Source: Legionella nautarum (lineage in GTDB: Bacteria; Pseudomonadota; Gammaproteobacteria; Legionellales; Legionellaceae). Taken from it: a stretch of DNA of 64,000 nt. The stretch lies in contig NZ_LNYO01000023.1 in NCBI RefSeq assembly GCF_001467895.1, positions 1 through 64,000 of the forward strand. The letters are read 5' to 3'. Shown in pieces: positions 33,449 through 49,593 of the stretch. Made by a program: the position numbers and the translations under genes. Each line of letters starts with the position of its first letter. The first letter of the stretch is position 1. The notes below the pieces were generated by a model. It was given only the letters and a program-made list of their open reading frames with translations, had not been told where the DNA came from and searched no databases.

Positions 33449-34813
33449 TTACAGGGCATTAAAGTCGAGCAAAAATTTTTCAGCGCTTCCAGATTGATAG
33501 CTTGCTTTATCGACTCTCACATAAATAACCCGTTCTTCTTTGGCAATAAGAACCTCTTTGATCCCAGGCAATTTTTTCAATTGCCTCTCTAAATCGGTTT
33601 CATTTTTTACCGTGGAAGGATAACTTAAAATAACCGTTGAAAGATAAGCTTCGGGTTTCATGAAAAAGCTAAGGCTCAGCCACAATAAGCTGATTGCCGC
33701 ATTGCAAAAGAAGATACCAAGATTCCCCGCAAATTGATACAGCAACCCCGCTGCTAACCCACCAACAAAAATGCCTAGAAATTGGCTGCTGGAATAGACA
33801 CCCATTGCGGTGCCTTTTGAAGTAGGTCCTGCTTGTTTTGACACGAGAGAAGGTAGTAGTGCCTCGAGAATATTAAAAGCAGCAAAATAAAGAAACATTA
33901 AAGCACATAAACTTAGCCAATGTTGACCCGTTAGTGCAAGGAAAAATTGGGCAACCAAGATGATAAACACGGATAGCAAAAAGACAAATTTCATCTGACG
34001 CTTTTTTTCTGCTAAAAGGATAAAGGGCACCATAAGCAAAAAAGCGAAAATCATCAAAGGAAGATAAAAATGCCATTGTTCAGCTAAATGACCGTCTTTG
34101 ATTTGCTGCTGTAGAAGAAACGGTATGGCATAAAAGGTAGCCGTCAAAATGAAATGTTGAAAGAAAATGCCAGCATTTAAACGCTGCAGATGTTTGTTGC
34201 GAATGACTGTTTTGAAAAGAGAAGAATCGGCTTCACTATCGATATGGAAACGCTCTTTCGTCGGTGTTGGAATAACTGTATGAAGTAATAATAAACCTAA
34301 TAAGGCTAATACGGCGGTCAAATAAAAAATACCAGCTAAGCCATAATGATGAGTAAGTGCCGGGCTAAGCACCATGGCCAGGCTAAATGAAAGACCAATC
34401 GTCATGCCGATTACTGCCATTGCTTTAGTTCGTTGCTCGTCTGGCGTGAGATCTGCAAGTAAGGCAATTAATACACTGCCAATAGCCCCCGTTCCTTGTA
34501 AAGTTCTCGCGAGAATCATGGTATAGATAGAATGACTTAGCGCACCAAGGATGCTGCCACCAATAAAAAATAATAATCCGATAGTCAGTATCGGTTTTCT
34601 ACCAAAACGATCCGATAACATGCCGAAAGGCATTTGCAAAATTCCTTGGCTTAATCCATAACTACCTAAAGCCAAACCGATAAGCGCAGGGGTGGCGCCC
34701 TGAAGCTGAGTTGCAAATACAGTAAATACAGGGATTAGCATAAATAATCCCAACATGCGGAACGAAAAGATGGCAGCAATCGGAAAGACGCTGTTTAACC
34801 AGGAATGCTTCAT
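33449..34813 (-). CDS. YajR-like MFS transporter with C-terminal soluble domain
   Basis: 454 residues, the same length as E. coli YajR. Twelve hydrophobic segments span about 5-380. MFS motif A GMLSDRFGRKP is at 64-74. After the last helix a ferredoxin-like domain of about 65 residues (LPGIKEVLIAKEERVIYVRVD) matches the YAM domain that distinguishes YajR. It is probably a proton-driven exporter in the inner membrane; its substrate is unknown. No convincing ribosome-binding site. Confidence 0.85.
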   Translation of the reverse strand: MKHSWLNSVFPIAAIFSFRMLGLFMLIPVFTVFATQLQGATPALIGLALGSYGLSQGILQMPFGMLSDRFGRKPILTIGLLFFIGGSILGALSHSIYTMILARTLQGTGAIGSVLIALLADLTPDEQRTKAMAVIGMTIGLSFSLAMVLSPALTHHYGLAGIFYLTAVLALLGLLLLHTVIPTPTKERFHIDSEADSSLFKTVIRNKHLQRLNAGIFFQHFILTATFYAIPFLLQQQIKDGHLAEQWHFYLPLMIFAFLLMVPFILLAEKKRQMKFVFLLSVFIILVAQFFLALTGQHWLSLCALMFLYFAAFNILEALLPSLVSKQAGPTSKGTAMGVYSSSQFLGIFVGGLAAGLLYQFAGNLGIFFCNAAISLLWLSLSFFMKPEAYLSTVILSYPSTVKNETDLERQLKKLPGIKEVLIAKEERVIYVRVDKASYQSGSAEKFLLDFNAL

Positions 34814-35247: not shown

Positions 35248-36003
35248 ATGTCCTTACAGTTTGCTAATAAGGTTGCTCTGATTACCGGTGGGGCACGTGG
35301 CATTGGAAAGGCAACAGCGCTTAAATTTGCGCGCAACGGAGCTGATATAGTTATTGTTTATTACAACAGTTCTGATGAAGCCCAAATTCTGGTTGAAGAA
35401 ATAAAAGGATTAGGCCGAAAAGCTGTAGCTATCCAAGCTAATGTTGCGGATCATCAGTCCGTCAAAGAAATGTTTAGCGTCTTTCGCGAGCATTTTTCTC
35501 AGCTCGATTTTCTCATTAGCAACGCGGCGAGCGGGGTGTTAAAACCGGCTTTAAAAATGTCGACCAAGCATTGGCGTTGGTGCATGGAAACCAATGCGCT
35601 TGCTTTGAATCATTTAGTGTCAGAAGCTATCTCGCTCATGAGTCGACGCGGACGAGTGATTGCTTTATCTAGTCTAGGTGCGCATCGAGCGATTCCAAAT
35701 TACAGTTTCATTGGTGCTTCAAAAGCAGCCCTTGAAGCGTTGGTTCGTTCATTGAGTCTTGAATTAGCAGAATATGAGATTACTGTGAATACAGTGTCTG
35801 CTGGAGTTGTTGATACGGATGCCTTAAAACATTTCCCTAACCGCGAACAACTTCTTGATGAGTATCAAGCGCATTCTCTTTCAGCTCGTCCTTTAACCAC
35901 CGAAGATGTTGCTGATGCGGTTTATTTATTGTGTTTACCCGAAGCACAGATGATTAATGCCCATACTTTGTTTGTTGATGCAGGTTATAGTCAAGTAGGT
36001 TAG
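35248..36003 (+). CDS. fabL: enoyl-ACP reductase, FabL (EnrIII) type
   Basis: 251 residues, SDR fold. NAD(P) loop TGGARGIG at 13-20. The catalytic pair is Y152 and K159 in NYSFIGASKAALEAL, i.e. the Y-x6-K spacing of enoyl reductases rather than Y-x3-K of FabG. The segments NAASGVLKP (92-100) and DTDALKHFPNRE match what is remembered of Bacillus subtilis FabL closely. It would reduce trans-2-enoyl-ACP in fatty acid elongation. It is a single-gene unit with its own promoter, about 6 kb from the fatty-acid cluster at 41682. Confidence 0.82.
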   Translation: MSLQFANKVALITGGARGIGKATALKFARNGADIVIVYYNSSDEAQILVEEIKGLGRKAVAIQANVADHQSVKEMFSVFREHFSQLDFLISNAASGVLKPALKMSTKHWRWCMETNALALNHLVSEAISLMSRRGRVIALSSLGAHRAIPNYSFIGASKAALEALVRSLSLELAEYEITVNTVSAGVVDTDALKHFPNREQLLDEYQAHSLSARPLTTEDVADAVYLLCLPEAQMINAHTLFVDAGYSQVG

Positions 36004-41681: not shown

Positions 41682-42092
41682 ATGAATGTAGAGACCGTTT
41701 ACCCGAAAGTAAGGGAAATTATCGCTGATGTGTTGGTTATTGACGAAGAAGAAGTGTCTTTGAACAGCCGTTTAATAGGCGATTTGGGTGCCGAGTCCAT
41801 TGATTTCCTTGATTTGGTTTTTCAATTAGAGAAAGAATTTAGTATTAAAATTCCCCGTGGCCAATTAGAGAAAAATGCACGAGGCGACTTAGCAGAGGAC
41901 GAGTTTGAAAAGGGCGGCGTACTAACTGTTAAAGGTATGCAAGCACTTAAAAATTATTTGAATGAAGTTCCTGCAGAGTATTTTAAGGCGAATTTGAAGG
42001 TGAATGAGATTCCGATGTTATTCACAGTAGAAACTTTTTGTAAGCTGGTCGTCATGGCAGCCAGTGAACAAGCTTGTGAAACTGTTTCCTAA
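41682..42092 (+). CDS. acyl carrier protein with C-terminal extension (AcpXL-like)
   Basis: 136 residues. The phosphopantetheine site is S39 in GDLGAESIDFLDLVF. The ACP core covers about 1-95 and includes a charged insert (EKNARGDLAEDEFEKGG, 63-79). Residues 96-136 are an extra tail (EVPAEYF...ETFCKLV) not in ordinary ACPs. GAGGA precedes the ATG. The last base overlaps the next ATG (TAATG). First gene of the five-gene operon. It probably carries the growing very long acyl chain; this is inferred from context. Confidence 0.88.
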   Translation: MNVETVYPKVREIIADVLVIDEEEVSLNSRLIGDLGAESIDFLDLVFQLEKEFSIKIPRGQLEKNARGDLAEDEFEKGGVLTVKGMQALKNYLNEVPAEYFKANLKVNEIPMLFTVETFCKLVVMAASEQACETVS

Positions 42093-42991
42093 TGCGATTC
42101 TTATTTGTCGATCGAATTCTGCAGTTATCACCTGGTGAATTGGTGCGGGGGATAAAGCATATCACACCTGATGATGCTTACCTTTATCCTGATGGGCAAG
42201 GAAGGCTTTGCTTCATTCCCTCTTTAATTGGAGAAACTTTAGGGCAATTAGCTGCGTGGTCTGTCATGTTTAGCAATGACTTCACGCTAAGGCCGGTTGC
42301 CGGCGTGGCTGCTAGCGCACGGGTACATAGACCTGTCTATGTAGGTGAAACCTTGCTATTGGAATCGGTTATCGAGTCACTTGACAATAAAGCGGTACAA
42401 TATCGTAGTGTTGCTTATGTCGCTGATGAGGTTGTATTTAACCTTGATGGGGCTTTAGGCCCTTTATTACCTATGGCTGATTTTATTGACGAGCAAGTGG
42501 TTCGCCGCCAGTTTGCCGAAATAAATCGCCCCGGTGATTGGCCGCAGCATTCTGACTCTGTACCACTGCTACCTAACTCGGAGTTGGCTTCAATCGCTTT
42601 GGCAAGGCCTAGTATATCGATGACCTTCGATCGAATTATTGATTCTAAACCAGGGGTTAGCCTCACTGCTGAAAAATATGTGACTCGAGCGGCGCCTTAT
42701 TTCCCCGATCATTTTCCCAACAAACCTGTTTTACCGATGACTGTTTTATTGGAGTGCAAGCAAAATTTAGCACGTGAATTTGTTACGCGCGGGTCTTTTG
42801 AGCAAAATTATCAGGTCTCTGAGTTACGTCGAATCAAAATGAATGACTTTGTTCATCCCGGTGACGTGCTTAGAACTCATCTTAAAGTCAAAGAACAAAA
42901 TTCACAGCAATTAATCTTAAATTACCGTAGTGAAGTAGACGGCAGACGAGTGTGTGTTTTAGATGTTGTGATGATGGCAAAAGGTAATTAA
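42092..42991 (+). CDS. double-hotdog 3-hydroxyacyl-ACP dehydratase (FabA/FabZ-like)
   Basis: 299 residues. The first half has the helix IGETLGQLAAW with E48 but no His motif. The second half has PYFPDHFPNKPVLPMTVLLE, where H207 and E221 match the FabZ HFPxxP...E signature. It is therefore a tandem hotdog with one complete His/Glu site. It would dehydrate 3-hydroxyacyl-ACP in the elongation cycle. Translationally coupled to the ACP gene and 4 bases from the ketosynthase. Confidence 0.85.
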   Translation: MRFLFVDRILQLSPGELVRGIKHITPDDAYLYPDGQGRLCFIPSLIGETLGQLAAWSVMFSNDFTLRPVAGVAASARVHRPVYVGETLLLESVIESLDNKAVQYRSVAYVADEVVFNLDGALGPLLPMADFIDEQVVRRQFAEINRPGDWPQHSDSVPLLPNSELASIALARPSISMTFDRIIDSKPGVSLTAEKYVTRAAPYFPDHFPNKPVLPMTVLLECKQNLAREFVTRGSFEQNYQVSELRRIKMNDFVHPGDVLRTHLKVKEQNSQQLILNYRSEVDGRRVCVLDVVMMAKGN

Positions 42992-42995
42992 AACT

Positions 42996-44297
42996 ATGAA
43001 AAACAGACGAGTCGCAATTACGGGCTTAGGCGTCGTATCGCCTTTAGGTAATGACGTACAGTCTACTTGGCGCAATTTATTAGCAGGTCAGTCTGGAATT
43101 GCGAAGATAAGGCACTTCGATGCCAGCGGTTTCCCAGCGAATATCGCTGCTGAAGTGAAACAATTTCAACCGCATCCCGAGGCTGTTACTGGAAAACATA
43201 ATCGCTTTTCAATGCAGTTTACTCGCTACGCCTTGGATGCAGCGTATCAAGCTTTTTTAGATGCTGGAATAAAACCCACCCAGCAAGATGCTTCGCGTTG
43301 GGGGGTGGTAACTGGTAGTGGCATGATGACAGCCGAGTTTTCCTATTTGAAACGATTTCAAGAAGCTTGTGCCAATGGAGGTACACCTGATTGGAAGCTG
43401 CTGCAGGAGCGTACACGAGAATTTTATAGCTTAGTTGATTTTGGCAGGACAACCTCCAATTCGGGTCTGTCTTTACTGATCCAGCAATTTGGTATCGAAG
43501 GTTATGCCTCTTCGGTTCACACTGCCTGTGCCTCAGGTGGCCAGGCTTTAGGTTTAGCTATGCAGGTTATTCGCCGTGGCGAAGCCGATTTCATGTTAGC
43601 CGGTGGTTTTGATTCGATGATTAATCCTTTGGGACTATCGAGTTTTTGCCTGCTTGGTGCTTTATCAACTTATAATGCTACTCCAGAAACAGCAAGCCGA
43701 CCTTTTGATGGCACACGCAATGGTTTTGTATTAGGTGAAGGCGCTGCTTTTTTAATTTTGGAAGAGTGGTCTAAAGCAAAAGCCCGCGGCGCTAGAATTT
43801 ATGCTGAGTTGGCAGGGGAAGGTAATTCACTTAGTTCCTACCGTATTACTGATTCACACCCCAATGGCGATGGTGCTATTCAAGCCATCGAACGTGCTCT
43901 ACAAGATGCTGGGGTAAAAGCAAGCGACGTCGACTATATTAATGCGCATGGTACCTCAACCAAGATGAATGATTTGAGTGAAACCAATGCGGTTAAAGCG
44001 GTATTTACTGACAAAGCAAAACGATTACCGATTAGCTCAACGAAGAGTCAAACAGGACATCTTATCGCAGCGGCAGGCGCTTTAGAGGCTGTGTTGTCAG
44101 TCCTGTCGATTCATCATGCCCAAATTCCTAAAACTGCCAATTTGACTACGCCTGATCCAGATTGTGATTTGGATTATGTGGTAGATGGTCCGCGCGAAAA
44201 ATCCTTAGGCGTGGTCTTATCCAATTCCTTCGGTTTTGGTGGCTCAAATAGCTGTTTGCTGTTTAAACATCCTGAATTTGAAGGAGTGGTTCGATGA
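42996..44297 (+). CDS. beta-ketoacyl-ACP synthase, FabF-like (active)
   Basis: 433 residues. The thiolase-fold condensing enzyme has a complete Cys-His-His triad: C178 in HTACASGG, H318 in NAHGTST, H355 in TGHLIAAAGA, plus K350. It would add malonyl units to acyl-ACP. It overlaps the following ketosynthase homologue by 4 bases (ATGA). It is not the primary fabF by context, since no acpP or fabG is beside it. Confidence 0.93.
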   Translation: MKNRRVAITGLGVVSPLGNDVQSTWRNLLAGQSGIAKIRHFDASGFPANIAAEVKQFQPHPEAVTGKHNRFSMQFTRYALDAAYQAFLDAGIKPTQQDASRWGVVTGSGMMTAEFSYLKRFQEACANGGTPDWKLLQERTREFYSLVDFGRTTSNSGLSLLIQQFGIEGYASSVHTACASGGQALGLAMQVIRRGEADFMLAGGFDSMINPLGLSSFCLLGALSTYNATPETASRPFDGTRNGFVLGEGAAFLILEEWSKAKARGARIYAELAGEGNSLSSYRITDSHPNGDGAIQAIERALQDAGVKASDVDYINAHGTSTKMNDLSETNAVKAVFTDKAKRLPISSTKSQTGHLIAAAGALEAVLSVLSIHHAQIPKTANLTTPDPDCDLDYVVDGPREKSLGVVLSNSFGFGGSNSCLLFKHPEFEGVVR

Positions 44298-45568
44298 GTA
44301 ACTCCAATCGTGTTTTTATTACCGGCTTAAGTGCTCTAACTCCTTGTGGTGAAACCGCTGAACAAACTTGGCAGTCAATACTAGCGAAACAAAGCGGCCT
44401 TGCTGAGCTTGGTCAATGGGATTTATCTTCCTGGCCACATCGCTTAGGCGGCGAGCTTAAAAATTTTCAGCCAGGGAAAATGTTGCCTGATCGCAAGCTA
44501 CTGAAGGTTATTTCTCGTCAGGATGTGTTGGGAATTAATGCAGCAGTGCAGGCGGTACAGCATAGTGAGCTGCTTAATTACCGCGAAACCTTAGAAAATG
44601 CCGATTTTTTCAATGAACAAACAGCAGTTTATGTTGGATCGCCGGGGAATAAATATTTCCAGCAAGAAGATTTTTTACCGCTTTTAGCTAAAACTGGCGA
44701 TAACATGCAAAATTTTGCCAGCCAATTATTTACGGAAGTTCACCCAATGTGGTTGCTACGTATTTTACCGAATAATGTCTTGGCTTATACCGGGATAAGT
44801 TACGGTTTTAAAGGACCAAACCATAATATTACTAACCATGCAGTGGGTGGTATGCAGGCTATTATTGAAGCCTATCAAGCGCTTAAACAGGGGCAAGCCC
44901 AGCGTGCGGTTGTGGTAGCCTATGATGTTATTGAACCGCAAGCGCTATTCTATTATGAAAAAATAGGCGTGCTCAGTACACGTCATTTAAAGCCCTTTGA
45001 TGTGGACCATGATGGGACTCTTTTGTCGGATGGGGCAGCAGCTTTAATCTTGGAAACTGAAGAAAGTGCAAAGGCTCGTTCCGCAACTTGCTACGGTGAA
45101 ATTAGAGCTGGTTTGGCGGCAACTGAGGCTTCTGGTTTGTTTTCCATCGAAGCAGAAGGTAGTCATTTGGCTAGTTTATTATCGCGAACACTTGAAGGGC
45201 ATGCTATTGATGCTGCTGAAGTCGGTATGATTGTCGCTCATGGTAATGGTAATAACAAATCAGATGACAGTGAAGCACAGGCAATTCATAGCGTTTTTGA
45301 TGGTAAGCAGGTGCCAGTTACAGCCTTTAAATGGTCTTATGGCCATACGATTACAGCTTCTGGAATTTTAGATGCAGTCATGGCAACCTGTGCAATTCGC
45401 GATAACTGTATTCCTGGTATTGCAAATTTTGCTCAACCAGCACCTCTCTGTGAAAGTTTAAATCTTAGTGCTGAACACAGAGCATTGGGGGCAAATAAAA
45501 CAGCGATGATTATCAATCGCGGGTTTGCCAGTATGAATGCTTGTTTAGTGATCAAAGCTTGTGAGTGA
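44294..45568 (+). CDS. ketosynthase homologue without catalytic Cys (chain-length-factor-like)
   Basis: 424 residues, same fold as the preceding gene. At the nucleophile position the sequence is NITNHAVGG (H182 in place of Cys). H316 in VAHGNGN, H351 in SYGHTITA and K346 are kept. Such an enzyme cannot condense by the normal mechanism. Pairs of active and Cys-less ketosynthases are typical of chain-length-setting heterodimers in type II systems. It overlaps the acyltransferase by 8 bases. Confidence 0.9.
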   Translation: MSNSNRVFITGLSALTPCGETAEQTWQSILAKQSGLAELGQWDLSSWPHRLGGELKNFQPGKMLPDRKLLKVISRQDVLGINAAVQAVQHSELLNYRETLENADFFNEQTAVYVGSPGNKYFQQEDFLPLLAKTGDNMQNFASQLFTEVHPMWLLRILPNNVLAYTGISYGFKGPNHNITNHAVGGMQAIIEAYQALKQGQAQRAVVVAYDVIEPQALFYYEKIGVLSTRHLKPFDVDHDGTLLSDGAAALILETEESAKARSATCYGEIRAGLAATEASGLFSIEAEGSHLASLLSRTLEGHAIDAAEVGMIVAHGNGNNKSDDSEAQAIHSVFDGKQVPVTAFKWSYGHTITASGILDAVMATCAIRDNCIPGIANFAQPAPLCESLNLSAEHRALGANKTAMIINRGFASMNACLVIKACE

Positions 45569-46412
45569 GTTAGCCAATAAAATAGCAAAGCTACGTATTT
45601 CCTTGGCAGGTCGGTTTTTATATCGCTATCTGCCTTATCGACTTGCGGTGGTTAAAGCCAACATTGAGCAAGTGTTTGGTGAGCAACTGACTGAAACAGA
45701 AAAGCTGCAACTCACCAAAGCCTTTTACTCCCATTTAGCGACCTCGATAAAAGAAGCGATTCAACTGCGATTCATGAGTGAAAAGAAGCTATGTGAGCAA
45801 GTTGAAGTACGGGGCTATGAGCGTTTGCTGGAAATTGTTGCTGAAAAACGCGGTGTACTTATACTTACTGGCCATTTTGGTAATTGGGAATTCGCCCCGA
45901 TAGGTGGAATTTTAAATTTCAAAGAATTTCAAGGACAGTTTCACTTTATTCGCCGCACGCTAGGTTCTAAATTAATCGAAAAAATTTTATTCAAACGCTA
46001 TTACCAAGCTGGTCTTAACGTTATTCCTAAAAAAAATTCACTACAACAAGTTTGTGATGCACTCGAGCAAAATCATGCAGTGGTTTTTGTTTTGGATCAG
46101 CATGCTTCGCTAGTGAATCGAGATGGCGTTGCGGCTGAGTTTTTTGGTAAAAAAGCAGGTACTTATCGTAGCTTAGCAAGTTTCGCACGTCATACTGGCG
46201 TACCCGTTGTCCCGGCGGCAGGTTATCGTTTAGCGAATGGGAAGCATGTACTTGAGTTTTATGAACCTATTCTTTGGCAAGAATATGACAGTGTTCAAGA
46301 ATCAATTTATCGCAATACGCTTAGTTATAATCAAGCATTAGAGCGAATTATTTTGGCTCGCCCGGAACAATGGATGTGGTTACACAAGCGATGGAAATTA
46401 AAGGAAAAATGA
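45561..46412 (+). CDS. lipid A acyltransferase, LpxL/HtrB family (LpxXL-like)
   Basis: 283 residues, GTG start inside the preceding gene. The HX4E catalytic motif is H105-FGNW-E110 in TGHFGNWEF. Later conserved blocks are DQHAS and FFGKKAGTYRSLASFA. The family transfers acyl chains from ACP to lipid A precursors at the inner membrane; the N-terminus lacks a strong transmembrane helix. As the last gene of the fatty-acid operon it probably transfers the product of its neighbours. It ends 4 bases before the convergent large gene. Confidence 0.9.
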   Translation: MSELANKIAKLRISLAGRFLYRYLPYRLAVVKANIEQVFGEQLTETEKLQLTKAFYSHLATSIKEAIQLRFMSEKKLCEQVEVRGYERLLEIVAEKRGVLILTGHFGNWEFAPIGGILNFKEFQGQFHFIRRTLGSKLIEKILFKRYYQAGLNVIPKKNSLQQVCDALEQNHAVVFVLDQHASLVNRDGVAAEFFGKKAGTYRSLASFARHTGVPVVPAAGYRLANGKHVLEFYEPILWQEYDSVQESIYRNTLSYNQALERIILARPEQWMWLHKRWKLKEK

Positions 46413-46416
46413 CTCT

Positions 46417-49400
46417 TTAGTGGCCTAAGGATGGAGCGCTTGCCTGGAGCTGCTCTCCATTTGCTTTAACTTTGAATACTCCAAAGCTCCCTAATGGTTG
46501 GCTAACATTCTTTTCTTCTTTTAATTCTTTCAACTTGAGCTGCAAATAATTAACAAGCTCCTTTTGTTGGGTAGTTTGGGCTCTCTCAAGCGCTATTCTA
46601 ATAAATTTAGGGTTGGGTTTGTTTTCTGGTAGTTCATACAAAAAAGCAAGAATATCGGTACGCTGATGATTAACTGCAAGCAATATTGAATCATTAATGC
46701 ATTCTTTGCCTACAGGAGAAAGCGCTTTGCAAATCGAGATAACAAAATCGAAATGACCTTTTTTAATTGCTTCAGCTAACGCTTTTGCCAGTGCCCTGGG
46801 TCTCGGTCTGTTAGTAGCTAGCTTACAAAATAAGTCAACAGCTTGTGGTTTATTGGATTGTATTGCCCAAACTAATAACGAATCGATGGCCTGTTGTAAT
46901 GCCTTGGAGGGAGAAGACTGCTCACAAATAAGTTTAGTAATAACTAAATGCTCTGCTCTTGTGGCTGCTTGTAAACTAAGCACAATAGCCCTTTTTTTGG
47001 TGTTTGGCGGAGTCATTTTAAGTAGAGCGATTAGAGTCGTTACATGACCCTGTGTTGCTGCTTCGATTAAAGATTTTTCTAGGAGTGATTTATCTACCAC
47101 TGCACCCGGTAGGCTACTCAAGCAGCTTAGCATAGAATTAAGACCCAAGGATGCTGCTGCCTTGAACCCTTGGGCAAAGACAAACTGTTTGGGTCTTAGC
47201 TTCGTTAAGTTCGCAAGACAGATCACAGTATCAATATCGTTATTAATAATGGCCTGTTTAAAGGCATTATTAATGTGGACCTCATGGGGCGCGATGGCTT
47301 TGGGTAAGTCATCGCAAAGATAAGTTGCTATAGAGAAATGTTTATACTTAAGTGCTACATGAAAAAGTTTTTCACTCATACTTTTGCTGGGTTTATAGCT
47401 AGGCGAAGCATAAATTTGTTTGACGATGGATAAATGATTATTAATGGTTGCTACTTCAATTCCTTGCGGATAAGCTGCAGTAATTGAAACATAAGTTTTT
47501 CTATCGCAAATTTGTTTTACTAGAGCTATTTCTCCTGCTTGTGCTGCTAAAATAAGTATCTTGCTCAGCGTTTCACGTGAGATTTTTTTAGGTACAATTT
47601 GGCAGAGGGACGAAGCCGTGGCCCAATGTCCAGAGCGTGCTGCGGCCAGTACCGCAGCATTCAAGCAGGGTTTTTTTACTCTATTTTGAGTATTAATCAA
47701 GCGAAGAAGCCCCTCATTTCCTTGCGCGGCCGCTTTAATAAAAATAGAGGTTTCGCCATACTCTTTAGTCATCCAATCCAAACAGGAAATAGGGTTGCCT
47801 TCTAATTTTGCAATGATCTGCTTTCGGATTGGCTCGTCATCGATAGCAGTTAGTACTTCAATCAGCGTTCTTTCATGGAGACTTTTCCCTTCTTCGCTAG
47901 TTGGATCTGGTAAGGATAAGGCATCGACAAAGCGATCAATATTAAAATTGGAGCCAAGTTTTCTATGGGAAGCGCAAGCGATTTGAGCCAATAAAAAGTA
48001 CTTATTACGCGGCTCAGCATGGGGTTGAGGATCAAGACGATAGATCACTGCTAATTTTCGATTGATTTCAAGCCAAACATCTTCTATTGAATTGTATCGA
48101 GAACTATCTAATTCATCATTGGTATTTTCCTCAATAGAGCTAGCGAGCTGTACATGTAAAAAATTGCATCGACTTTTAAGCTGATGAGACCAGGCTGGGT
48201 AGTATTTTAGCTGACGTACTAGCCTATCATCATCAAGTAGCTGAGGTTGATGATAAAAATTATCAACCAGCGCCTCAAAAACAATACTCGCTGAGGGGTG
48301 CTCAAAACTTACCAACCGTTTGAGCAATATAGATAATTGCATGATGGTATCAAGATTGGTAGCAGCAGCCATTTGTTCAATATAAGCTTTTACATCTTGA
48401 ATTTGAATTTGTTGGATAAGAGCGGGTTTGTAGGCTAATAAATAAAGAATTGCCCCGTCGTGATTTGCTGCTAATTGACCTGCTGTCGAATCATTAATGA
48501 GAGAGGCTAATACCTCAGATAATTCAGTTTTAGCCTGACGGCCGACATAGTTAATTAATGCAGGTAATTGGCTAGTTATTACACTAGGCTTGTTTAAATA
48601 GTTATATAATGAATCGAACCATGCTAAATTTTTTGTGTGCACGAACCAGATAAGAGCTGCGGGAAGAAACGAATGGCTGAACAATTCTGCAAGTGCGGTA
48701 AAATTATCAGCAGTTGGAGAAAATGCCCAGACAACAGGCTGTGCTTCAACTTGACGTAAACCCTCCCCTCGAGAACCATCCAGAGCAAATTTTAGAAAAC
48801 CACGCTCTCCGCAACTGACTGTTTTCGCCTCTGCAACCAGTGCTTGAGCTTCAGGAAACATTTTCAAAATATCGTATAAATGATTAATTTCGGACTCAGG
48901 TAAGTCTAAATAGGAGAGGTTATAACGCATGAAATCATGGAGCAGGTGAGTTGCTATAATTTTTCTCACTGGAACACGGCATTGGATTAACCAAAGAATA
49001 AAAGCAGCATAGGCCTCAGTATTATCAATAAATTCTTCTTTGATTAAATTGCCAAGCCCTAAAGGATTTTCTTGATGTTTCAATGCATGGTTTAGTTCGG
49101 CCAATCGTTGTCGAACAATAGGGAGGGTTTTATCTAATTTAGTTATTCGAGCGACAAGCAGATTGACTTCATTATGATTAGCGAAGTCTGCTGTGTTTTG
49201 ATTGTAAAAATCGATTGCAGCCTCTTTATCTTTATTAATTAACTGTTTAAATAAGAAAAGAATTTTTTCTTTAAATTTAGGAGGTTGATTTTCTTGAGGC
49301 ATTGCTAATAAATAGCCTAAAGTAGAGAAAACAAGATCGGAGTCGTTGCCTTTCATGTAATCCATTGAAAAACCGATAAAACTCAATAATTGATGACTTC

Positions 49401-49593
49401 GCTCAAGCTTTTCTTGGTCTGTAAATGTTGAAGACTCAAGCTTCGCTAGCCGTGCTTGAGCAATTAGCTGGCGATTTATTTTTTTGATTTGGGTTTGTTC
49501 TTTTGCGAGTTCAGAGTTTGTAATTGGGTGAGTAGGGAAAGGAGTATCGATTTCGTCACTATTAATCCATTGCAGAATGAGACTAATTATCAT
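46417..49593 (-). CDS. large ankyrin-like repeat protein, candidate secreted effector
   Basis: 1058 residues, no signal peptide or transmembrane segment. From about 610 to 1030 there are some 13 degenerate units of about 30-37 residues of the type A-x2-AA-x2-GH-x3-V-x2-LC-x3-P, resembling divergent ankyrin repeats. The N-terminal 600 residues are helical with no motif recognised. The C-terminus has a charged stretch (LKLKELKEEKN) then a polar tail, similar to the E-rich tails of Dot/Icm substrates. Monocistronic. Effector status is inferred. Confidence 0.75.
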   Translation of the reverse strand: MIISLILQWINSDEIDTPFPTHPITNSELAKEQTQIKKINRQLIAQARLAKLESSTFTDQEKLERSHQLLSFIGFSMDYMKGNDSDLVFSTLGYLLAMPQENQPPKFKEKILFLFKQLINKDKEAAIDFYNQNTADFANHNEVNLLVARITKLDKTLPIVRQRLAELNHALKHQENPLGLGNLIKEEFIDNTEAYAAFILWLIQCRVPVRKIIATHLLHDFMRYNLSYLDLPESEINHLYDILKMFPEAQALVAEAKTVSCGERGFLKFALDGSRGEGLRQVEAQPVVWAFSPTADNFTALAELFSHSFLPAALIWFVHTKNLAWFDSLYNYLNKPSVITSQLPALINYVGRQAKTELSEVLASLINDSTAGQLAANHDGAILYLLAYKPALIQQIQIQDVKAYIEQMAAATNLDTIMQLSILLKRLVSFEHPSASIVFEALVDNFYHQPQLLDDDRLVRQLKYYPAWSHQLKSRCNFLHVQLASSIEENTNDELDSSRYNSIEDVWLEINRKLAVIYRLDPQPHAEPRNKYFLLAQIACASHRKLGSNFNIDRFVDALSLPDPTSEEGKSLHERTLIEVLTAIDDEPIRKQIIAKLEGNPISCLDWMTKEYGETSIFIKAAAQGNEGLLRLINTQNRVKKPCLNAAVLAAARSGHWATASSLCQIVPKKISRETLSKILILAAQAGEIALVKQICDRKTYVSITAAYPQGIEVATINNHLSIVKQIYASPSYKPSKSMSEKLFHVALKYKHFSIATYLCDDLPKAIAPHEVHINNAFKQAIINNDIDTVICLANLTKLRPKQFVFAQGFKAAASLGLNSMLSCLSSLPGAVVDKSLLEKSLIEAATQGHVTTLIALLKMTPPNTKKRAIVLSLQAATRAEHLVITKLICEQSSPSKALQQAIDSLLVWAIQSNKPQAVDLFCKLATNRPRPRALAKALAEAIKKGHFDFVISICKALSPVGKECINDSILLAVNHQRTDILAFLYELPENKPNPKFIRIALERAQTTQQKELVNYLQLKLKELKEEKNVSQPLGSFGVFKVKANGEQLQASAPSLGH

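What the first reader, a model, noticed from the sequence alone, without database searches (positions are those of the whole stretch)
41682..46412. Compact ACP-dehydratase-KS-KS-acyltransferase operon, probably for very long chain lipid A acyl groups
Five genes overlap or nearly touch (1-8 base overlaps, one gap of 4). Order and content match the rhizobial acpXL-fabZXL-fabF2XL-fabF1XL-lpxXL cluster, which makes and attaches the C28 acyl chain of lipid A. Legionella lipid A is known to carry C27-C28 oxo and dioic acids. Seen: gene families, motifs and coupling. Inferred: that this operon makes those chains. No ketoreductase is in the operon, so reduction must be supplied from elsewhere.
Basis: partly seen in the sequence, partly recalled or inferred. 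Interest (0 to 1): 0.8.

Follow-up and report, generated by a model that had tools for sequence, protein, structure and literature searches.

The report
Legionella lipid A long-chain fatty-acid factory
A group of neighbouring genes, kept together in the Legionella relatives examined and also seen in bacteria of other phyla, looks like a small dedicated fatty-acid factory that makes very long chains and hands them to the outer-membrane lipid, although the product has not been measured.

Summary
The five-gene operon is real (41682-46412, +): carrier protein, dehydratase, two ketosynthases, LpxL-type lipid A acyltransferase. It is not the rhizobial XL cluster: the four proteins for which a rhizobial model was found fall far below cut-off, the active and defective ketosynthases come in opposite order, the dehydratase is a double hot-dog, and the carrier has an insert of about 38 residues.

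Two things change the picture. First, a sixth part lies in the same window: a FabL-type enoyl-ACP reductase at 35248-36003. In most relatives with sequence held it is upstream of the carrier gene; here other genes intervene. Second, the cassette occurs in assemblies labelled Acidobacteria, Methylomirabilota and Verrucomicrobia, where a ketoreductase joins it. Enoyl reduction argues for a saturated chain and against aryl polyenes.

In 17 of 22 same-genus genomes this is the only LpxL-type acyltransferase found; no LpxJ-type match was found in any of the 22. Best reading: a dedicated fatty-acid synthase module feeding very long chains to lipid A, probably the known C27-C30 oxo and dioic acids of Legionella. 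Chain length and product are inferred. The second ketosynthase lacks its cysteine in 76 of 80 loci but keeps both histidines in all 80; its role is open.

The parts
35248..36003 (+). FabL-type enoyl-ACP reductase (251 aa), separated here from the operon by 5.7 kb of other genes
   Evidence: NF005975 FabL 381.6 bits, cut-off 328; Tyr-x6-Lys stretch read from the sequence; above cut-off in 22 of 22 same-genus genomes and in 1 of 14 control genomes; upstream of the ACP gene in 58 of 69 named loci with at least 1200 bases upstream
41682..42092 (+). Dedicated acyl carrier protein, 136 aa, Ser39; core resembles AcpXL, plus an insert of about 38 residues
   Evidence: PF00550; alignment with cassette ACPs and AcpXL; 81-98% identical in 19 fetched same-genus loci
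42092..42991 (+). Double hot-dog 3-hydroxyacyl-ACP dehydratase, 299 aa; His207 and Glu221 in the C-terminal half, Glu48 without a conserved matching His in the N-terminal half
   Evidence: PF07977 on the C-half; AlphaFold mean pLDDT 84.9; Foldseek double hot-dog matches, though with whole-length rmsd of about 9-15 A; His207, Glu221 and Glu48 invariant in 20 sequences
42996..44297 (+). KS1, beta-ketoacyl-ACP synthase with Cys178, His318, His355
   Evidence: PF00109/PF02801; above the cut-off of the FabF subfamily model NF005589, 453.6 against 387; active-site columns; tree
44294..45568 (+). KS2, ketosynthase-like protein with Ala183 in place of the active-site Cys; His316 and His351 kept
   Evidence: Ala183 invariant in 21 sequences; FabF models well below cut-off
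45561..46412 (+). LpxL-type lipid A late acyltransferase, HFGNWE at residue 105; the only PF03279 match in this genome
   Evidence: PF03279 142.2 bits, cut-off 22.3; 1 match in the whole genome at E 0.001; motif; passes no NCBIfam cut-off, best PRK08419 168.2 against 248

Best explanation
The genes encode a dedicated type II fatty-acid synthase module coupled to a lipid A acyltransferase. The special ACP carries the growing chain. KS1 condenses, with KS2 as its partner. The cell's general ketoreductase reduces the keto group (in other phyla the cluster has a FabG-type gene of its own). The double hot-dog dehydratase and the FabL-type enoyl reductase complete each round, giving a saturated very long chain. 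The LpxL-type acyltransferase moves it from the special ACP onto lipid A as a secondary acyl chain. In Legionella the chain is most likely the C27-C30 (omega-1)-oxo, hydroxy and dioic acids known from its lipid A. Shown: gene content, order, conservation, missing Cys in KS2, presence and placing of the enoyl reductase, one LpxL-type gene in most same-genus genomes. Inferred: chain length, product, transfer step, KS1-KS2 pairing, and where the terminal oxygen comes from.
For: Five genes in one order in 64 of 64 named loci with room, of 80 held; KS2 in 136 of 140 Legionellaceae genomes searched. FabL-type reductase above cut-off in 22 of 22 same-genus genomes and upstream of the ACP gene in 58 of 69 loci with at least 1200 bases upstream; FabG-type gene there too in 9 of 69, all outside Legionella. 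An AcpS-like domain is fused to the acyltransferase in 2 of 3 such proteins scanned with Pfam (L170, L173 yes; L164 not at E 1e-5). One PF03279 gene in the window genome and in 17 of 22 same-genus genomes; LpxJ family PF04028 in 0 of 22. [quoted passage not shown] In Agrobacterium, fabF2XL mutants have no very long chain in lipid A (passages of PMC11901934), and FabF2XL lacks the Cys in 12 of 12 rhizobial loci aligned, so a Cys-less KS may be needed for this job; the mutants are insertions and could affect the next gene.
Against: No product was measured, and chain length cannot be read from sequence. KS1 also passes a general FabF subfamily model. Since this is the only LpxL-type enzyme found in most of these genomes, it may also or mainly attach ordinary chains from the general ACP. 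Nothing in the cluster explains the (omega-1)-oxo or dioic end. No lipid A data were at hand for the cassettes of other phyla, which come from metagenome-assembled records. Presence is near-universal in Legionellaceae, so presence and product cannot be correlated. 11 of 69 loci lack the enoyl reductase in the stretch held. Four of 80 KS2 proteins keep the Cys.
Confidence: 0.72

Rival explanations
1. It is a true rhizobial-type acpXL-lpxXL cluster, inherited or transferred, making its chain in the same way.
For: Same gene classes; ACP core shares the DFLD and IKIP stretches with AcpXL. In the tree KS1 is next to FabF1XL (92/86) and KS2 next to FabF2XL (93/89), both short of the starred level. 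A deep common origin is therefore possible.
Against: ACP 49.9 bits against AcpXL cut-off 83; KS1 336.6 against 629; KS2 46.8 against 320; acyltransferase 104.4 against 273. KS order reversed. Dehydratase ORFs of 152-168 aa in 7 of the 8 rhizobial loci where one matched, against 299 aa here. KS1 is 44-46% identical to FabF-like proteins of two Legionella genomes and 39-41% to FabF1XL of five rhizobial-type genomes; KS1 grouping with FabF is not rejected (p-AU 0.205).
Confidence: 0.12
2. The module makes an aryl polyene, polyketide or other pigment-like polyene.
For: A KS pair with ACP, dehydratase and an LpxL-like acyltransferase also occurs in aryl-polyene clusters (recalled). KS2 matches chain-length factors on Streptomyces and Kitasatospora plasmids at about 28-29%.
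Against: A FabL-type enoyl reductase with Tyr-x6-Lys goes with the cassette, which a polyene would not need. The best plasmid match is annotated FabF, at 29%. No AMP ligase or thioesterase among the window neighbours scanned, though an MFS transporter gene lies at 33449-34813 on the other strand; few neighbours in other phyla were scanned.
Confidence: 0.05
3. The acyltransferase is simply the ordinary lipid A late acyltransferase and the other genes make a chain for another lipid; co-location is convenience.
For: It is the only PF03279 enzyme found in 17 of 22 genomes, so it must serve ordinary secondary acylation too unless an unknown enzyme does.
Against: Acyltransferase and synthase genes stay together in 64 of 64 loci with room, nine of which come from the 13 records titled outside the Legionella group. 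In L170 and L173 the acyltransferase is fused to an AcpS-like domain, which ties it to a carrier protein.
Confidence: 0.11

Closest known systems
Rhizobial acpXL-fabZXL-fabF2XL-fabF1XL-(adh)-lpxXL cluster
   Same: Dedicated ACP, dehydratase, one active and one Cys-less ketosynthase, LpxL-type acyltransferase; very long lipid A chains reported in both groups of bacteria
   Different: KS order reversed; KS2 keeps both His while FabF2XL has Glu for Cys and no first His in 12 of 12; double hot-dog dehydratase; ACP insert; FabL-type reductase nearby, no alcohol dehydrogenase seen; the four proteins with a rhizobial model miss its cut-off
Type II polyketide KS/chain-length-factor pairs
   Same: An active KS next to a KS homologue lacking the Cys
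   Different: The cassette goes with an enoyl reductase and a lipid A acyltransferase; no polyketide tailoring genes among the window neighbours scanned; KS2 keeps both His
Aryl polyene clusters (recalled, not compared by sequence)
   Same: ACP, dehydratase, KS pair, LpxL-like acyltransferase
   Different: Enoyl reductase goes with this cassette
Legionella pneumophila lpg0359-lpg0362
   Same: Listed as ACP (lpg0359) and as FabB (lpg0361, lpg0362) in PMC13200437 (passages); probably the same genes, by order and kind
   Different: The passages treat them as general fatty acid synthesis and leave open which ACP does what; identity not checked by sequence here

Membership tests
Rhizobial XL cluster | ACP passes the AcpXL model NF005079 | tested here: not met
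   49.9 bits, cut-off 83; a rhizobial AcpXL scores 190.7; 34 of 398 genomes have a match at E 1e-18, the window genome not
Rhizobial XL cluster | Active KS passes the FabF1XL model NF005076 | tested here: not met
   336.6 bits, cut-off 629; rhizobial member 759.8
Rhizobial XL cluster | Degenerate KS passes the FabF2XL model NF005084 | tested here: not met
   KS2 46.8 bits, cut-off 320; rhizobial member 606.8
Rhizobial XL cluster | Acyltransferase passes the LpxXL model NF005120 | tested here: not met
   104.4 bits, cut-off 273; rhizobial member 485.8
Rhizobial XL cluster | Degenerate KS gene precedes the active KS gene | tested here: not met
   Degenerate first in the 12 of 13 rhizobial loci where both were found; active first in the window and in 64 of 64 cassette loci
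Rhizobial XL cluster | ACP, dehydratase, two KS and LpxL-type acyltransferase in one cluster | tested here: met
Rhizobial XL cluster | Product is a C26-C30 lipid A chain | not testable with these tools
   Needs chemistry; Legionella lipid A data from passages of PMC7867332
Aryl polyene synthase | No enoyl reduction (conjugated product; recalled) | tested here: not met
   A FabL-type reductase goes with the cassette
KS/chain-length-factor pair | Second KS lacks the active-site Cys | tested here: met
   Ala183 in the window; over 80 named loci Ala 66, Gly 6, Ser 2, Thr 1, Val 1, Cys 4
KS/chain-length-factor pair | KS and partner form a heterodimer | not tested
   Single-chain KS2 model was poor, mean pLDDT 58.9; no prediction of a complex was made
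Lipid A late acyltransferase (PF03279) | Domain and H-x4-D/E motif | tested here: met
   142.2 bits, cut-off 22.3; HFGNWE at residue 105
FabL-type enoyl-ACP reductase | Passes model NF005975 and has Tyr-x6-Lys | tested here: met
   381.6 bits, cut-off 328; sequence; meaning of the motif recalled

The most novel reading that the evidence does not exclude
KS2 is not an inert partner but a starter-making enzyme. Having lost the condensing Cys (76 of 80 loci) but kept both histidines (80 of 80), it would decarboxylate malonyl on the dedicated ACP and help form an acetoacetyl start that escapes the first reduction. Twelve further rounds would give 27-oxo-octacosanoic acid directly, and thirteen the C30 homologue, so the odd ketone next to the chain end would come from the starter unit and not from a late oxidation; the C27 dioic acid would be its one-carbon-shorter oxidation product.
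Probability: 0.15. Interest if true: 0.82.

Novelty: new variant of a known kind. Interest (0 to 1): 0.62.

Why it matters
[quoted passage not shown] This work gives a six-gene candidate set, including an enoyl reductase that the operon alone does not show, and environmental relatives in which it can be tested. It also shows a fatty-acid module with a lipid A acyltransferase in records of four phyla, built differently from the rhizobial one, so very long lipid A chains may be more common than known, and it points to a Cys-less ketosynthase as a shared design element of two distant systems.

Tried and rejected
Rhizobial orthology by family models: rejected. LpxJ as the missing second acyltransferase: PF04028 in 0 of 22 same-genus genomes. 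Aryl polyene: set aside because of the enoyl reductase; no aryl-polyene reference was compared. The ACP-like hit L165 (G761) lies beside a methylase, an aminotransferase and transketolase genes, not in the cassette. The KS2 AlphaFold model was too poor to use, so no fold search was made with it. The first KS tree held rows translated on the wrong strand: nine came out short and were dropped and at least three wrong ones stayed in; it was replaced (58 rows: 12 KS1, 9 KS2, 9 of 12 FabF1XL, 5 of 12 FabF2XL, 23 others, rooted by my choice on FabF2XL). The acyltransferase tree has only two E. coli outgroup rows, long branches meet in it, seven of the eight extra Legionella copies with a locus were used (L027, with stops inside, was left out), and my one-clade test there set those copies apart from the cassette enzymes by mistake, so its p value of 0.0177 is not used. 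A pattern count of the KS2 active site found the motif in only 60 of 80 loci and was replaced by an alignment. Whether the statement in PMC5613085 that a five-gene cluster occurs in all bacteria with such lipid A (citing Ardissone 2011, not read) was meant to include Legionella could not be settled.
Full report
Observation. Pfam gives PP-binding, FabA-like, two ketoacyl synthases and Lip_A_acyltrans. The window lies in a 3.65 Mb genome of 27 contigs, 99.98% complete. The nearest relative among the fetched loci has 87-98% identical cassette proteins (L043) and lies on a contig whose length (91,426) equals that of the Legionella drozanskii record L236.

Conservation. In 19 of 20 fetched same-genus loci all five genes were found in the same order; the other (L041) is cut by its contig end. 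A KS2 profile found a match at E 1e-45 or better in 136 of 140 Legionellaceae genomes; the four misses are G436, G452, G459 and G484, and G436 and G459 are 0.5 Mb genomes of one genus. The order search (112 genomes, 108 hits) listed only family members, so it adds nothing independent. In 398 genomes of the phylum only the window genome passed 1e-60, although in the rows shown only four candidates per genome were scored.

Relatives outside Legionella. A profile of the ACP hit 8 of 274 genomes of the class at E 1e-12: three Legionellaceae and five others. Four of the five carry the cassette as far as their contigs reach (one of them, L161, has the contig length of a record titled Legionellales, L176); in the fifth the ACP stands in another context. 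A scan of named genomes with a KS2 alignment confirmed 105 loci and kept the best 80. By record title, 13 of the 80 are: Gammaproteobacteria RIFOXYD12 (1), Methylomirabilota or NC10 (4), Verrucomicrobia (4, two of them titled Akkermansia), Acidobacteria (3; L185 and L194 placed there) and one uncultured bacterium. Four more (L198, L203, L208, L243) are titled only Gammaproteobacteria or Proteobacteria; the rest bear Legionella-type names. All 13 are titled as metagenome-assembled records, so wrong binning is possible record by record. Ten of the 13 show all five genes; L169, L175 and L177 are cut by contig ends. Of the 80, 64 have room for five genes and 64 of 64 have them in the same order; nine of these belong to the 13.

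The missing reductases. In several of these relatives two short-chain reductases lie directly upstream of the ACP gene. One passes the curated model of enoyl-ACP reductase FabL (4 of 4 scanned: L163, L173, L174, L185). The other scores best with FabG models and passes the FabG subfamily model NF009466, though not the FabG equivalogs (4 of 4 scanned: L163, L168, L173, L174). Searching the Legionella genus for the FabL model gave a match above cut-off in 22 of 22 genomes; of 14 control genomes 13 gave some match and 1 passed the cut-off. In the window genome the match lies in the window itself, 35248-36003, with 381.6 bits against a cut-off of 328. It carries Tyr-x6-Lys, the pattern of enoyl reductases, where FabG has Tyr-x3-Lys (sequence; meaning recalled). 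From the coordinates it is on the same strand and contig upstream of the ACP gene in 20 of 22 genomes, at 0.1 to 18.8 kb; in the other two (G015, G021) it is on another contig. Among named loci with the ACP gene and at least 1200 bases upstream, 58 of 69 have it and 9 of 69 also have the FabG-type gene, all 9 outside Legionella. In the window a formylglutamate amidohydrolase, a HutF-like amidohydrolase, a glyoxalase-family protein, a DUF3541 protein and DNA polymerase IV lie between.

Active sites. KS1 has Cys178, His318 and His355; KS2 has Ala183, His316 and His351. Ala183 is invariant in 21 sequences. Over 80 named loci the residue is Ala 66, Gly 6, Ser 2, Thr 1, Val 1 and Cys 4, while both histidines are kept in 80 of 80. 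The four with Cys are L170, L171, L174 and L175, all titled Verrucomicrobia or Akkermansia, so Cys loss is not universal; this tells against a fixed inert role for KS2. KS1 has Cys in 77 of 80; of the rest, two are gaps and one (L195) is a contig-cut locus where KS2 was picked up instead. KS1 passes a general FabF subfamily cut-off (453.6 against 387) but not the FabF equivalog (462.4 against 493.75).

Rhizobial comparison. The AcpXL model hits 34 of 398 genomes of the phylum. In 13 loci fetched from them, the Cys-less FabF2XL stands before the active FabF1XL in the 12 where both were found. FabF2XL has Glu in place of Cys in 12 of 12, Gly or Ala in place of the first His in 12 of 12, and the second His in 11 of 12; FabF1XL has Cys in 12 of 12. 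KS1 matches FabF1XL at 35-39% in 13 of 13; the dehydratase matches in 8 of 13 at 24-28%; the acyltransferase in 12 of 13 at 20-29%. The window proteins miss the four rhizobial curated cut-offs that were found. In the tree (58 rows) KS1, KS2, FabF1XL and FabF2XL are each one group with strong support. KS1 next to FabF1XL has 92/86 and KS2 next to FabF2XL 93/89, both short of the starred level; KS1 with FabF is not rejected, p-AU 0.205. The ACPs share a core (DFLD, IKIP) with AcpXL but carry about 38 more residues. A deep common origin is possible; orthology gene by gene is not supported.

Dehydratase and acyltransferase. The dehydratase model (pLDDT 84.9) has two hot-dog units. The top Foldseek hits are mostly double hot-dog thioesterases and dehydratases at whole-length rmsd of about 9-15 A, and FabZ matches one half at about 3-4 A, so the fold of the halves is firmer than their arrangement. 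The window genome holds one PF03279 gene. Among 22 same-genus genomes 17 hold one and 5 hold more, and none gave an LpxJ family match. In the acyltransferase tree the seven extra Legionella copies used group with the Legionella cassette enzyme (98/98) inside the cassette group, with long branches in play. So either this enzyme sets more than one secondary chain or an unknown enzyme helps.

Literature. PMC7867332 (passages): L. [quoted passage not shown] PMC11901934 (passages): the Agrobacterium cluster, and fabF2XL and adhlA2XL insertion mutants with no very long chain in lipid A. PMC5613085 (passages): says, citing others, that a five-gene cluster occurs in all bacteria with such lipid A, and names Legionella among bacteria with such chains, so the general idea may already be in print. 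PMC13200437 (passages): lists lpg0359 as one of three putative ACPs whose roles remain to be determined and names lpg0361 and lpg0362 under FabB. The ten paper searches listed no paper that I could see assigning these Legionella genes to the lipid A chain; apart from passages of the four papers above I saw listings only, and most subscription papers are not held.

Mechanism. Taken together, the parts make a nearly complete elongation cycle with a dedicated carrier and a dedicated exit to lipid A. That is my best reading at 0.72. The exact Legionella chains are a further inference. The starter hypothesis for the odd ketone is bold and untested; it rests on kept histidines, lost cysteine and carbon counting.

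Noticed in passing
L173:7276-8520, L170:7293-8552: AcpS-like phosphopantetheinyl transferase domain (PF01648) in front of the LpxL-type acyltransferase in one reading frame; L172 begins alike (not scanned), and L164 looked alike by eye but gave no such match at E 1e-5.
   Followed up: partly
window 46417-49593 (-): 1058-residue ankyrin-repeat protein (PF12796), convergent with the acyltransferase gene and ending 5 bases beyond it; effector-like look, not tested.
   Followed up: no
L024, L029 (G008); L025, L030 (G004); L023, L028 (G007): Some Legionella genomes carry a neighbouring pair of extra LpxL-type acyltransferases that group with the cassette enzyme, as if arisen by duplication.
   Followed up: partly
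L170, L171, L174, L175: KS2 of these Verrucomicrobia- or Akkermansia-titled loci has Cys at the active-site position, unlike the other 76 of 80 loci.
   Followed up: partly
G436 and G459 (0.5 Mb genomes of one Legionellaceae genus): No KS2 match: a natural lineage apparently without this gene, useful as a contrast for lipid A chemistry.
   Followed up: no
L165:2639-3040: A carrier protein with the same kind of long insert stands in another gene context (aminotransferase, transketolase halves, fatty acid hydroxylase-like gene), hinting at a second use of this carrier type.
   Followed up: partly
G447:C18:142223-143494 and G447:C22:109400-110671: One Legionellaceae genome holds two full-length KS2 copies.
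   Followed up: no
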